DNA of 64,000 bases from NCBI RefSeq assembly GCF_947500125.1, contig NZ_CANMRA010000003.1, positions 62,001 through 126,000 on the forward strand, read 5' to 3'. The position numbers and the translations under genes are program-made. Positions 42,316 to 50,258 of the stretch are shown here, piece by piece. Under the pieces are notes generated by a model, which saw nothing but the letters and a program-made list of their open reading frames with translations, did no database searches and was not told where the DNA came from. This stretch comes from an uncultured Kocuria sp. Its GTDB lineage: Bacteria; Actinomycetota; Actinomycetes; Actinomycetales; Micrococcaceae. How positions within the stretch are numbered: the stretch's first letter is position 1; every line of letters begins with the position of its first letter.

Positions 42316-45300
42316 TCACGGTTCGCTCACCTGCCGCCCCTCGGCGCACAGCGGGCAGATCTGCGGCAGCTTGCACCCGTGACCGTTGAAGGCGCCCTCG
42401 GCCTGGTCGTGGCGGGCGGTGAACCGTTCCCCGGCCACGAGCTCCGCGGCCCGGGTGATCAGCTCCCGCGCCCATGTGGCGTCCGGGTCGAGGGGGTCCT
42501 GCTGCTGCACGGACGGGGACTTGGCCCGGGTGCCGAGCTGGACGAGCAGGGCGCCGCCGGAGAGCTCCGTCACGGTGCCGCCGGGCAGCTCCAGGACGGT
42601 CTCGTCCGCACCGGCGACCATGGCCGAGCCCGCCCCCGCCGTCAGCGCCACCTGGTAGGCCGCCAGCTGCGGGTGCTCGGCGATCTTCGCCCCGGCCGGC
42701 TGGTTCCGTCCGGTCTTGAGGTCGACGACGACGTAGCGGCCCTGCTCGTCGAGCTCGAGGCGGTCCACGCGGCCCCGGAGCAGGGCGTCGCGCGCCCGCC
42801 CCTGGACGAGCACGCTGAACGCGCCCTCCACGGAGGCCAGCCGGCGGCCGTGCTTGCCGCGGGCGTCCAGCACGTACTGGGCGAACTTGCGCAGCATCTG
42901 CCGGGCCCGTTCGAGCTGGACCGCCGACTCCCAGGTGTCCGGCAGCCCCAGCGTGGGCCAGCGGCGCTCGAGCTCGGCGACGAGCTCGGCGCCCGGCGCC
43001 TCCGGCAGCTCCTCGGCGATGGCGTGCACGAGCGAGCCGAGGCTGCGGCTGAGGTCGGTGGCGGCCTCGGCCCGCGAGGCCGCCACGAACCAGTCGAGCG
43101 GAGACCGGTGGATGGTCTCGATCCGGGACGGGGAGACGGGCACGGGGACCCCGTCGTCGAAGACGGGCGCCGTGCTGGAGAGCTCCGCCGCGCCCCACCA
43201 GGTGTCGGGGTGGGCGCCGGGCACCGGTCGCGGGGAGGCGGCGATGCGGTGGAGCAGCCGGGCGGCGGCCTCGGAGCGCACCGGGTCCTCCTCGTGCAGC
43301 TGGACCCACTGCCGCAGCTCGGCCACGAGGGCGCGCAGCGTCATGGGCCGCGGGGCGTCCACCACGGCTCGGGCGCCGTCCCCGGGCCGGGAGCCCGGGG
43401 GGTCGACGAGGTCCAGGAACTCCGAGGGCTGCTCGTCCTCGCCGGCGGCCGCCGTGACCACGAGCGTCCCGCAGCTGCGGGAGACCGCGGCGGAGAAGGA
43501 GCGCAGCTCGTCGTGGCGGACCTCGCGCATCCGGGTCACCGGGGTGACCCGTGCGGCCTGCTCGACGCCGAGGTCGAGCGCGTCCGTGAGCAGGTCCGCG
43601 CCCAGCAGCTGCCCGCGCAGGCGGGTGTTGGGCCACACGCCCTCCTGCACGCCGGCGACGAAGACCACCGGCCACTGCCGGCCCGCGGCCGTGGCCGGCG
43701 TCATGATCTCGACCGTCTCGTCGGTCGGGGCGCGGGCGGCCAGGGTGTCCATGGGCAGGTCCTGGTTGTCGACGTAGTCCAGGAACTGTGCGGGGCTCGC
43801 GCCGGGCAGGTGGTCGACGTAGCGCTCGGCCGACTCGAACAGGCCCACCACGGCGTCGAGGTCGCGGTCGGCCCGCTCCCCCGCGGGGCCGCCCTCCAGC
43901 GCGCGCCGACGCCAGGACTCGGCGACCCCGGCCGCCTCCCACAGCGCCCACAGGACGGTCTCGGCCGTGGCGCCCTCCTCCCGGAGGGCGCGGGTGCCGG
44001 CCGTGAGCATCCGGGCGATCCTGCGGGCCGGCACGGAGCGCACCCCGGCGGCGTCGAGCGCCCCGGGGGCCACGAGGGCCTCCACGAGCAGGTCGTCGCT
44101 GGTGCGGAGGCCGCCCGCGGCGAGCTCCTCCGCCCGGAGCCGCTGGCGCAGCCGGCGGACGTCCATCGGGGAGGCGTTGCCGATCCGGGAGCTCAGCAGG
44201 TCGACGGCGGCCTGGACGGTGAGGGCGCCGAAGTGGGCGTCCTCCTCCCCCGCCCCGGACGCCGCGGCCGCCTCGGTCACGATGCGCAGCGCGCCCAGCA
44301 GCGGGCGCACCGCCGGCTCGTCCCGGACCGGCGTCTCCGCCGCGGAGGTGCTGACGGGCACGCCGAGGGCGGAGAGCTGGCGCTCGAGGCCCTCCAGGTA
44401 GCGGCCGTTGCGCACGACCACGGCCATGTCGGCCAGCGGGACACCGTGCACGAGGTGGCGCTCGAGGACCTGGTGGGCGATCCAGCGGGCCTCGTGCAGC
44501 GGCGACGGGAGCACCACCGTGGTGACCTCCCCCGGCGCCGCGCCGCCTCCCGCGCCGTCCCGCATGCCGTGGTCCGGGGCGTCCTCCGCCGTGGCGACCT
44601 CGGCGTGCGCCGCGTCCGCGGTGTTTGCGGTGCCCGCGATGTCCTCGGGGTCCGCGGCAGGCAGGAGGCCGCGGGGGTGCCGGGCCCCGGCGACGGCGGG
44701 GATCCGCTCGGCCACGCGCCGCCACACCTCCGCGACGGCCCCGGGCATCCGCCGGCTCGTGCCCAGGGGGTGCCGGCGGAGGGGCCGGGCGGGCTCGGCG
44801 AGCCGGTCGTCGAGGGTGCGCAGCAGGTCGGGCCGGGCCCCGCGGAAGCCTTGGACCACCGTGTCCGTGCAGACCGTCATGACGGTGTCGCGTCCCCGGC
44901 ACAGCACCGCGAGCAGCCGGTGGATCGAGGGCGTCGCCTCGTGCAGGTCGTCCACGAGCACGAGGTCGAGGCGCTCCTGCTCGGCCCGCAGGAACTCCGG
45001 CTGCTCCTCGAGGACCCGTGCGGCCTCGGTCACGAGGACGGCGGGGTCGTAGGCCTCCGGCATCCGCAGCCGGCGGACGGCCAGGTACTCGGCGCGCAGC
45101 GTGGCGGCCGCGGCCCAGTCCGGACGCTCCAGGCGCCGGGCGAGGGCGCGCAGGTCGTCGGGGGCGAGGTCGTACTCGGACATCCGGTCGAACAGCTCGC
45201 GCACCTCCTGGCGGAAGCCGCGGGTCCCCAGGGCCTCCAGGAGGTCCGGCGGCCACACGACGGCGGCCCCGAACCCCGCGGCGTGTCCGGCCATGAGCTC

Positions 45301-45783
45301 GCCGATGAGCACGTCCTGCTCCGGGCCGGACAGCAGCTTGGGCCCGTGCGCGACGCCCGGGAGCAGGCCCTCGTTCTGCGCCCGCCGGAGGAGGTCGAAG
45401 GCGTAGGACTGCCAGGCCCGCACGGGCGGGGAGCTCATGGTGGCCGCGACCGCGGCCGTGAGGTCGTCCCGCAGCCGGGCGGCCGCGAGCCGGGACGGGG
45501 TGAGCACGAGCAGCCGGTCCGGGTCGAGGCCGTGGCCGATCCGGCGCGCCGCCAGCTCCACGAGCACCCGGGTCCGCCCGGTCCCCGGGCCGCCCAGCAC
45601 GAGCCGGGGCCCGCAGCCGGCCGGGAGCCCGGCGATCTCCTCCTGCTCGGGGCCCGGCCGCCACGCGGTGCGCTCCGGCGCGGAGCCGTGCGGGGGCACG
45701 AGGTTCCAGCGCACCGGACCCGCCCCGGGTGCGACGGAGCTCGTGACGGGGGTGCTGTCCTCGGAGTGCCGCATGGGTCTCAT
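42316..45783 (-). CDS. adnA: AdnA: helicase-nuclease subunit with altered P-loop
   Basis: A 1155-aa partner of AdnB (Rv3202c). The motor domain is degenerate: motif I is GGPGTGRT with Arg70 in place of the Walker A Lys, and motif II reads VLVDDLHEATP. The nuclease domain near residue 1020 is well kept (LRGRVDRLELDEQG, VVDLKTGRN). C-terminal cysteines in GCKLPQICPLC fit the Fe-S cluster of this subunit type. The complex would unwind with AdnB and cut with both nucleases. Start at the first ATG; a second ATG three codons later is equally possible. Divergent from the exonuclease gene. Confidence 0.93.
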   Translation of the reverse strand: MRPMRHSEDSTPVTSSVAPGAGPVRWNLVPPHGSAPERTAWRPGPEQEEIAGLPAGCGPRLVLGGPGTGRTRVLVELAARRIGHGLDPDRLLVLTPSRLAAARLRDDLTAAVAATMSSPPVRAWQSYAFDLLRRAQNEGLLPGVAHGPKLLSGPEQDVLIGELMAGHAAGFGAAVVWPPDLLEALGTRGFRQEVRELFDRMSEYDLAPDDLRALARRLERPDWAAAATLRAEYLAVRRLRMPEAYDPAVLVTEAARVLEEQPEFLRAEQERLDLVLVDDLHEATPSIHRLLAVLCRGRDTVMTVCTDTVVQGFRGARPDLLRTLDDRLAEPARPLRRHPLGTSRRMPGAVAEVWRRVAERIPAVAGARHPRGLLPAADPEDIAGTANTADAAHAEVATAEDAPDHGMRDGAGGGAAPGEVTTVVLPSPLHEARWIAHQVLERHLVHGVPLADMAVVVRNGRYLEGLERQLSALGVPVSTSAAETPVRDEPAVRPLLGALRIVTEAAAASGAGEEDAHFGALTVQAAVDLLSSRIGNASPMDVRRLRQRLRAEELAAGGLRTSDDLLVEALVAPGALDAAGVRSVPARRIARMLTAGTRALREEGATAETVLWALWEAAGVAESWRRRALEGGPAGERADRDLDAVVGLFESAERYVDHLPGASPAQFLDYVDNQDLPMDTLAARAPTDETVEIMTPATAAGRQWPVVFVAGVQEGVWPNTRLRGQLLGADLLTDALDLGVEQAARVTPVTRMREVRHDELRSFSAAVSRSCGTLVVTAAAGEDEQPSEFLDLVDPPGSRPGDGARAVVDAPRPMTLRALVAELRQWVQLHEEDPVRSEAAARLLHRIAASPRPVPGAHPDTWWGAAELSSTAPVFDDGVPVPVSPSRIETIHRSPLDWFVAASRAEAATDLSRSLGSLVHAIAEELPEAPGAELVAELERRWPTLGLPDTWESAVQLERARQMLRKFAQYVLDARGKHGRRLASVEGAFSVLVQGRARDALLRGRVDRLELDEQGRYVVVDLKTGRNQPAGAKIAEHPQLAAYQVALTAGAGSAMVAGADETVLELPGGTVTELSGGALLVQLGTRAKSPSVQQQDPLDPDATWARELITRAAELVAGERFTARHDQAEGAFNGHGCKLPQICPLCAEGRQVSEP

Positions 45784-48173: not shown

Positions 48174-49184
48174 TCAGGAGAGGCCGTTCTCGTCGCGGAA
48201 CCAGTCCGCGAGCTCGACGGCGAAGTAGGTCAGCACGGAGTCGGCGCCGGCCCGGCGGATGGACAGCACGGACTCCTGGATCGCGGCCTTCCGGTCGATC
48301 CAGCCGTTGGCCGCGGCGGCCTCGATCATGGCGTACTCGCCGGAGATCTGGTACGCGGCCACGGGCACCGGGGAGACCTCGGCCACGTCGCGGAGGATGT
48401 CGAGGTAGCTCATGGCCGGTTTGACCATGACCATGTCGGCGCCCTCGTCCAGGTCCAGCTGGAGCTCGTGCAGCGCCTCCCTGCGGTTGGCGGGGTCCAT
48501 CTGGTAGGTGCGCCGGTCGCCCTGGAGCTGGGAGTCCACGGCCTCGCGGAACGGGCCGTAGAACGCGGAGGAGTACTTCGCGGAGTAGGCCAGGACGGCG
48601 ACGTCGGGGTGCCCGGCCTCGTCGAGGGCGGAGCGGATCACGCCGACCTGGCCGTCCATCATGCCGGAGGGGCCGAGCACGTGGGCGCCCGCCTCGGCCT
48701 GGGCCACGGCCATCCGGCCGTAGACCTCCAGGGTCGCGTCGTTGTCCACGGTCCCGTCGTCGGCCAGGACGCCGCAGTGGCCGTGGTCGGTGAACTCGTC
48801 CAGGCACAGGTCGGCCATGACGACGAGGTCGTCGCCGACCTCCGCGCGGACGGCTCGCAGCGCCCGGTTCAGGATGCCCTCGGGGTCGCACCCGGCGCTG
48901 CCCTGGGGGTCCCGCTCTGCGGGCACGCCGAAGACCATGAACCCGCCGAGGCCCTTCGCCGCAGCCTCGGCGGCGGCCCGGCGCAGGGAGTCCAGGGAGT
49001 GCTGGACGACCCCCGGCATGGAGCCGAGCGGGGCCGGCTCGGCGAGGCCCTCCCGGACGAACACGGGCAGGATCAGGTCGGACGGGTGGACCCTGGTCTG
49101 CGCGGCGAGACGGCGCACGGCGGGGGTGGTGCGCAGGCGGCGGGGGCGGGAGACCAGGTCGTAGCGCGGGGTTCGGTGGGTCAC
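48174..49184 (-). CDS. hemB: HemB module: porphobilinogen synthase (internal GTG start)
   Basis: A 336-aa porphobilinogen synthase that joins two 5-aminolevulinate molecules. Catalytic lysines lie in [17 protein letters not shown] and [13 protein letters not shown]. The metal region is [16 protein letters not shown], where one of the zinc-type cysteines is Asp, suggesting a metal use other than pure zinc. The N-terminal [22 protein letters not shown] arm is typical. A GTG at 49184 has AGGAG 9 bases upstream, so separate initiation is credible even though the hemD frame reads in without a stop. Confidence 0.88.
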
Positions 49185-50258
49185 GGAGTTCGTCTCCTCG
49201 GTCGTCGGGAACGGTGTCGTCGGGAACGGTGTCGTCGGGAACGGTGTCGTCGGGAACGGTGTCGTCGGTGCAGGTGCCGCGGGGGCCGGCGCCGGGGGCC
49301 CGGGTACCGGCGGTGTCGGCGGTGCCGGGTCCGGCGGAGTCGGAGCGGGTGCCGCCGCCGCGGCGCGGGCGGTCCGCCCCGGGTCCGCGAGGGCCCGGGC
49401 GAGGGCGTCGCGGATCCCCTCCGGGGTGGGCAGGACCGCGGCGACGGCGGGCAGGCCGAGGTCGGCGGCGGCGCGGCGCGTGGGCTCGCCGATGGCCACG
49501 AGGACGGTGCCCGCCAGGACCGCGGGGTCGCCGCCGACGAGCTCGGCGAGGTGGGACGGTGCCGTGAGCACCACGGCGTCGACCTCGCCCCCGGCCAGGA
49601 CGGCCAGCAGGTCCGACCGGTGGAGCTCCGCCACGTCGTCGTCCGGAGCCGGCCGCACGAGGGGCGCGGCGGCCGGCCACGGCACGGTCTCGTAGGCCGT
49701 GGCCGTCAGGACCCGGTACCCCCGCCGGGTCAGGCCGGTCTCGAGCACGGGCCGCGCCCGGGCGGAGAGCGGCAGCAGGACCGTGCCGGGAGCGGGCTCC
49801 GGCGGCCAGTCGGCGAGCAGCCCGGCGGCCGAGTGCGCGGTGCCGGGCACCAGGTCCGGCGGCAGTCCCGCCGCCGCGAGAGCCGCGGCCGTGGCGTCCC
49901 CCACCGCGGCGACGCGCAGACCGGCCCGCCGTGCCGGCGCGAGCCGGTCGCCCAGCGGCGCCCCGGCCGGGTCCCCGGCGACCGCCCGCAGCGCCCGGAC
50001 CGTGGTCACCGAGGTCACCGCCAGCCAGGTCCGTGCGGCGGACGCCGGGTCCGCCGCACGGTCGAGGAGGGCGGTCACGGGAGCGGTGTCGGGGGGCAGG
50101 GTGGCCTCCAGCAGCGGGGCGAGCCGGACCCGGGCCCCGTGCCCGCGCAGCAGCCCCACGAGCTCCCGGGCCCGGTCGGCGGAGCGGGTGACGACGACCC
50201 TGGCGCCGCGCAGGGCGGCGGGGTCGGCGGAGCGGTCGGCGGGGCCGGGGCGCGGCAC
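48174..50258 (-). CDS. HemD-HemB fusion: uroporphyrinogen-III synthase / porphobilinogen synthase
   Basis: One uninterrupted 694-aa frame. Residues 1-290 are HemD ([56 protein letters not shown]), which closes hydroxymethylbilane to uroporphyrinogen III. A Pro/Ala/Thr linker (about 295-358) ends in four TTPFP units. Residues 359-694 are HemB (below). No stop codon separates the parts. The GTG start lies 5 bases after the hemC stop, so hemD follows hemC in the operon. Fusion of these two non-consecutive enzymes is unusual. HemB may also be made alone from its internal start. A sequencing artefact in the repeat cannot be excluded, but any change of whole 15-bp units keeps the frame. Confidence 0.7.
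49201..49268. repeat. 15-bp tandem repeat in the HemD-HemB linker
   Basis: Four identical copies of GTCGTCGGGAACGGT (49201-49260) and half of a fifth (to 49268). Read on the minus strand it encodes Thr-Thr-Pro-Phe-Pro repeats. The unit is a multiple of three, so copy-number changes keep HemD and HemB in frame. Confidence 0.95.

What the first reader, a model, noticed from the sequence alone, without database searches (positions are those of the whole stretch)
48174..50258. HemD and HemB in one open frame joined by a repeat-built Pro/Thr linker
HemD ends at about residue 290 and the frame continues without a stop through a Pro/Ala/Thr linker, including four TTPFP units, into a complete HemB. 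Known heme fusions include HemC-HemD and HemD with a methyltransferase; a HemD-HemB fusion joins two non-consecutive steps (porphobilinogen formation, and ring closure two steps later) with HemC just upstream. HemB also has its own GTG with AGGAG, so the cell might make both a fused and a free HemB.
Basis: partly seen in the sequence, partly recalled or inferred. Interest (0 to 1): 0.72.

Follow-up and report, generated by a model that had tools for sequence, protein, structure and literature searches.

The report
Heme enzymes HemD and HemB fused
Two heme-making enzymes that are normally separate proteins share one uninterrupted reading frame in this bacterium and several relatives, apparently because one base was gained just before the second gene's start, while that start signal was kept, so both a fused and a free enzyme may be made.

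Summary
Window 48174-50258 (minus) is one stop-free frame: HemD, a 66-residue Pro/Ala/Thr linker, complete HemB. It is no sequencing slip: 9 of 27 genomes of the genus (Kocuria, by matching contig lengths) are fused, 6 of them in the window's own clade of 8, including single-contig G014. In 9 of 9 fused genus genomes HemB keeps its Shine-Dalgarno sequence and start, 9 bases apart; in 10 of 10 whose HemD stop overlaps the HemB start (NTGA) the gap is 8. So the fusion mostly looks like one base gained in that spacer. It arose at least three times in the genus and rarely elsewhere: two clean cases and one with N among 366 other matched family genomes, one in another family (capped lists). The Pro/Thr linker is an older HemD tail, present in two unfused clade members; TTPFP units occur only in this genome of the eight. 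That HemD translation yields the fusion is inference; free HemB is likely but unproven, and benefit is open. My searches found no published HemD-HemB fusion.

The parts
48174..50258 (-). single open frame encoding HemD-linker-HemB (694 aa, 72.0 kDa calculated)
   Evidence: translation without stop; mass
49416..50165 (-). HemD (uroporphyrinogen-III synthase) domain
   Evidence: PF02602, E 2.8e-35, residues 31-280 of the 693-aa query that starts at 50255
49185..49382 (-). Pro/Ala/Thr-rich linker, residues 293-358 of the 694-aa product
   Evidence: coordinates; residues 296-345 and 350-388 have pLDDT under 50 in the model
49201..49268 (-). 15-bp tandem repeat, 4.5 identical copies, coding TTPFP x4
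   Evidence: Tandem Repeats Finder; translation
49194..49199 (-). GAGGAG Shine-Dalgarno sequence of hemB, in frame as Glu-Glu of the fusion
   Evidence: sequence; duplex energy -8.7 kcal/mol with a generic anti-SD
49185..49193 (-). 9-nt spacer between GGAG and GTG; 8 nt in the ten NTGA-overlap genus genomes
49182..49184 (-). GTG start of hemB, in frame inside the fusion (GTGA)
48174..49184 (-). HemB (porphobilinogen synthase), 336 aa, 36.2 kDa calculated; the one ALAD match of the genome
   Evidence: PF00490; NF006762 at 470 bits
50264..51217 (-). HemC (hydroxymethylbilane synthase), the step between HemB and HemD
   Evidence: PF01379 and PF03900
46804..48120 (-). HemL-type class III aminotransferase downstream
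   Evidence: PF00202; HemL assignment from context

Best explanation
This is a genuine gene fusion of HemD and HemB. The earlier arrangement was two genes with a 4-base overlap (GTGA or ATGA): HemD stopped at the TGA inside HemB's start, with HemB's ribosome-binding site 8 bases before that start. Gaining one base in this spacer put HemD's frame in phase with HemB, removed the stop, and left HemB's ribosome-binding site and start in place. Ribosomes that finish HemD now run on through HemD's old Pro/Thr tail, which becomes a flexible linker, into HemB and give a roughly 72 kDa HemD-HemB protein. New ribosomes can still start at the inner GTG and make free 36 kDa HemB. Shown: the frame, its conservation, the one-base difference, and the kept SD and start. 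Inferred: the direction of the change, that the fusion protein is stable and active in both halves, and that the inner start is used.
For: Both domains are over cut-off in one stop-free frame. Nine of 27 genus genomes are fused and 18 are separate; the fused include G014 (1 contig) and G023 (5 contigs). In the clade of 8, six junctions are 0 mod 3 and the two unfused ones 2 mod 3, never 1. SD-to-start spacer is 9 in 9 of 9 fused and 8 in 10 of 10 NTGA-overlap genus genomes, with GGAG in the same HemD codon phase in all 19. SD-anti-SD energies lie between -7.9 and -9.3 kcal/mol in the nine fused genus members. Fifteen consecutive bases over the SD are invariant among the six fused clade members, while ungapped identity at -60 to -40 is 0.38. 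HemD is 72-91% identical to the window in the five other fused clade members, so it is still under constraint. HemB is the one ALAD match in the genome. The model gives two mostly confident domains and a disordered linker. Further in-frame cases lie outside the genus: G347, G081 and G727.
Against: No protein or RNA data. The SD segment's third positions are not exceptional: 25 of 195 HemB windows are as conserved or more, so coding constraint alone could keep the SD; Glu-Glu is expected to be written GAGGAG in such a GC-rich genome (general knowledge). Two clade members are unfused, so fusion is not required. Spacer 9 also occurs in three unfused genomes (L009, L011, L012) whose HemD stops earlier, so the spacer alone does not make a fusion. 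In G347 and G081 the spacer is 7, as in three unfused relatives, so their frame change lies upstream. L017's sister L009 has no overlap, so an upstream stop must also have been lost there.
Confidence: 0.66

Rival explanations
1. The fusion is real but near neutral: the change from overlapping stop/start to in-frame junction is one base away and tolerated, and fusing the two enzymes brings no benefit. HemB supply rests on the inner start.
For: Fused and unfused states mix within one clade (L006 and L008 beside six fused); several origins; linker sequence and length drift; HemB keeps its SD and start.
Against: Frame kept through at least four linker length changes in the clade (slippage in 3n-base repeats could also give this); excess in Kocuria, 8 of 25 against 3 of 366 other matched family genomes, one of the three with an N (Fisher 1.3e-8, not corrected for shared ancestry).
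Confidence: 0.35
2. Only the fusion protein is made; the inner SD and GTG are fossils of the separate gene.
For: Start codon and SD are also explained by the amino acids they encode; third-position conservation is unexceptional.
Against: SD and start kept in 9 of 9 fused genus genomes while the neighbouring linker diverged in the window's clade.
Confidence: 0.2
3. Assembly or sequencing error removed a stop or shifted the frame.
For: A perfect 15-bp repeat sits in the junction.
Against: The same in-frame junction in five other clade members, among them the single-contig genome G014 and the 5-contig genome G023; gain or loss of whole 15-bp units cannot shift the frame.
Confidence: 0.02

Closest known systems
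CobA-HemD and HemC-CobA-HemD fusions
   Same: Heme-pathway enzymes joined in one chain with HemD as one part (passages of PMC11237513).
   Different: Those join HemD to the enzyme just before or after it; here HemD is joined to HemB, with the HemC step between.
HemA-HemB fusion of one Sulfolobus assembly
   Same: HemB as part of a fusion (PMC11237513 passage).
   Different: Other partner, archaeal, single assembly.
HemD-HemX fusion (NCBIfam NF005411)
   Same: HemD as part of a fusion known to NCBI.
   Different: Partner is a membrane protein; the window scores 18.8 bits against a cut-off of 414.
Overlapping NTGA gene pairs (translational coupling recalled)
   Same: Same SD, same start, same gene order; L006 and L008 in the same clade have it.
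   Different: In the window the TGA is out of HemD's frame, so there is no stop.

Membership tests
Porphobilinogen synthase (HemB) | ALAD domain over curated cut-off, near full length | tested here: met
   PF00490 2-317 of 317, 455.7 bits over 24.6; NF006762 470 bits over 297
Porphobilinogen synthase (HemB) | two active-site lysines (motif identity recalled) | tested here: met
   K561 in 10 of 10 rows of A1 and K613 in 9 of 9 rows that reach it
Uroporphyrinogen-III synthase (HemD) | HEM4 domain over curated cut-off | tested here: met
   PF02602 2-228 of 231, 122 bits over 27.5; the NCBIfam HemD equivalogs matched are all below their cut-offs
Uroporphyrinogen-III synthase (HemD) | cyclisation activity | not testable with these tools
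   needs assay or complementation
Heme-pathway fusion enzymes | two pathway domains in one stop-free frame, conserved in relatives | tested here: met
   9 of 27 genus genomes, 6 of 8 in the clade
Heme-pathway fusion enzymes | single polypeptide observed | not testable with these tools
   no proteomics held
NTGA overlapping gene pair | upstream stop lies inside downstream start | tested here: not met
   GTGA present but TGA out of HemD's frame, spacer 9

The most novel reading that the evidence does not exclude
The locus is a two-product gene selected as such: fused HemD-HemB and free HemB co-assemble into mixed HemB octamers carrying HemD on flexible Pro/Thr tethers, which sets the HemD:HemB ratio and places the ring-closing enzyme beside the porphobilinogen maker so that it can catch the unstable product of HemC. 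The one-base switch between overlapping and fused states has been used repeatedly in this genus.
Probability: 0.13. Interest if true: 0.65.

Novelty: new variant of a known kind. Interest (0 to 1): 0.45.

Why it matters
It adds a pairing of heme enzymes that my searches did not find described, and it shows a simple route to gene fusion: a 4-base stop/start overlap is one base from an in-frame fusion that keeps the second gene's own start. Because fused and unfused states sit side by side in close species with similar junction sequence, the value of an enzyme fusion can be tested directly.

Tried and rejected
One search used a HemB query in the wrong frame; one search replaces it. The first fusion rule was loose: it called L074 and L092 fused although an in-frame stop lies 26 and 20 codons before the HemB match; the stricter rule removes them. 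L159 (G287) reads as fused but has N bases at the HemD tail and early HemB, so I count it as unsettled. A test that the SD segment is more conserved at third positions than HemB did not stand out (25 of 195 windows reach it; 62 of 318 for five genomes). The Val codon count was out of frame upstream of HemB and is not used; the HemD end coordinate printed there is one codon off and is mended in 'parts'. Idea that the 15-bp repeat switches the fusion on and off: rejected, the unit is a multiple of three. Idea of a phase-variable C-tract: L007 and L006 differ by one C (5 against 4) before the GTG, but the window has no such tract.

Literature: searches (heme genes and fusions; general stop-loss fusion) showed no HemD-HemB fusion in what was listed; the lists were capped (20 of 39; 15 of 19; 20 of 168; 12 of 93), and I saw titles and abstract starts only. 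PMC11237513 (two passages) names other heme fusions; PMC10776470 (two passages) has only hemC-hemD-hemB gene constructs. Subscription papers and UniProt/InterPro domain tables could not be searched.

Survey limits: print only the best rows; a fused frame whose HemD the profile does not see would be missed, above all in the phylum search (181 of 246 matched; in the rows listed only the window is stop-free and full-length). The 80 named loci are the best of 559 and hold 0 fused, 76 separate and 4 without HemD upstream. Of the 30 family loci, 23 are separate and 7 have no HemD upstream; of 15 family loci picked for long or fairly long open frames, 12 are separate, 2 have no HemD upstream and 1 (L071, G347) is fused.

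Full report
The frame. Window 48174-50258 on the minus strand is one open frame. Pfam, given the frame from 50255, places HEM4 (HemD) at residues 31-280 and ALAD (HemB) at 369-685, both far over cut-off. Between HemD and HemB lie 66 residues rich in Pro, Ala and Thr, with a perfect 15-bp array (4.5 copies) coding four TTPFP units. HemB's own GTG is at 49182-49184, nine bases after GGAG. ALAD has no second match in the genome. HEM4 has two other matches elsewhere. The window gene sits in a heme cluster with HemC, a ferrochelatase, a chlorite-dismutase-family protein (HemQ type), a flavin oxidase and a class III aminotransferase (HemL type) (the names HemQ and HemL are from context).

Relatives. 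All 27 genus genomes held have a HemB match. With a HemD profile made from these loci, 9 of 27 genomes are fused and 18 separate. One of the nine, L028, is cut by its contig end inside HemB. A tree of joined HemB and HemD proteins (33 rows) puts the window in a fully supported clade of eight (100/100). Five form one subclade, all fused (window, L003, L004, L005, L028; 98/97). L007 (fused) pairs with L006 (separate) at 92/85, and L008 (separate) is outermost at 84/74, so those two placings are less sure. L017, and L021 with L023, lie in two other parts of the genus tree. If separate genes are ancestral, this needs at least three origins in the genus, plus one loss or one more gain in the window's clade.

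The one-base rule. In each genome I measured the distance from GGAG to the HemB start and the HemD codon phase at GGAG. All nine fused genus genomes have 9 bases and phase 2. Ten of the 18 separate genomes have the HemD stop inside the HemB start (NTGA); all ten have 8 bases and phase 2. Seven other separate genomes have HemD stops ending 16-83 bases before the start, with spacers of 7 to 9, and in L025 no GGAG start was found. Because the HemD frame enters the SD in the same phase in all 19, the difference between overlap and fusion lies in the spacer: one base. In L007 and L006 it is a run of five against four C. L017 has the same geometry, but its sister L009 has no overlap, so it also needed the loss of an upstream stop. 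Outside the genus, G347 and G081 have spacer 7 like three unfused relatives, so their frame change lies further upstream.

The linker is older than the fusion. Unfused L006 and L008 carry HemD tails of the same Pro/Thr character that end at GTGA. Lengths from the HemD IGEP motif to the GTG are 309, 255, 237, 177, 177 and 210 nt in the six fused members (0 mod 3) and 185 and 197 in the two separate ones (2 mod 3). The third phase, which would run out of frame into HemB, is not seen among these eight. This fits selection on the frame, but four length changes are few and 3n-base slippage would do the same. TTPFP units occur only in the window among these eight.

Is HemB still started on its own? 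SD pairing is -8.7 kcal/mol in all six fused clade members and -7.9 to -9.3 in the other three fused genus genomes. Fifteen consecutive bases over the SD are invariant in the six, whereas ungapped identity 40-60 bases upstream is 0.38; the GTG itself is kept in all six. Against this, third-position conservation of the SD segment (0.95) is matched or passed by 25 of 195 windows inside HemB, so it is suggestive only.

Structure. A model from ten sequences has mean pLDDT 74 and pTM 0.46. Most blocks of HemD and HemB are above 70; residues 1-10, 296-345, 350-388 and a HemB loop at 562-585 are below 50. This fits two domains on a flexible tether; their relative placing is not predicted. No PDB hit covers both halves: 24 of 25 cover HemB and one covers HemD.

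How common. A profile of the fused proteins (A1) was run over 395 family genomes, 391 with a match. The listed rows have stop-free full-length matches in 8 of 25 genus members and in 3 of 366 other matched genomes. Of these three, G347 and G081 are clean at DNA level and G287 has N bases. In an order draw, 166 matched genomes lie outside the family and one listed row (G727) is stop-free and full-length; its DNA (L176) confirms the fusion, with CACCAGGAGACCCCCATG at the junction. In a phylum draw, 180 other genomes matched and no listed row but the window's is stop-free and full-length. The genus excess is strong (Fisher 1.3e-8) but not corrected for ancestry, and the lists are capped.

Conclusion. 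A real and recurrent HemD-HemB fusion, most simply explained in the window's clade by one base gained in an overlapping stop/start junction. HemD cannot end before HemB, so HemD translation must yield the fusion unless it is cut (inference). Free HemB from the kept start is likely but untested. Whether fusion is useful or merely tolerated is open; fused and unfused species in one clade argue that it is at least dispensable.

Noticed in passing
window 48774-48806 (-): HemB metal-site region reads [11 protein letters not shown], with Asp where the E. coli enzyme has its middle Cys (comparison recalled); invariant in all ten rows of A1.
   Followed up: no
L155 448-2532 and L156 1426-2277: Two further HEM4-domain matches elsewhere in the genome; by eye the L155 ORF ends in a winged-helix-like part, as in regulator-type HemD proteins.
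   Followed up: partly
L013 (G024): HemD and HemB share a frame with a single TAG between them: one base change from a fusion. Many other family rows also show a single stop in one frame.
   Followed up: no
L108: Record titled Kocuria polaris MS50-16 is only 75% identical to the window in its best segment, lower than several Arthrobacter records; the label may be wrong.
   Followed up: no
L159 (G287): A single-contig genome with N bases in the HemD tail and early HemB, so its fused frame is unsure.
   Followed up: partly
window 42316-45783 (-): Long ORF that by eye looks like a helicase/nuclease of the AddAB type, next to a second helicase-like ORF.
   Followed up: no
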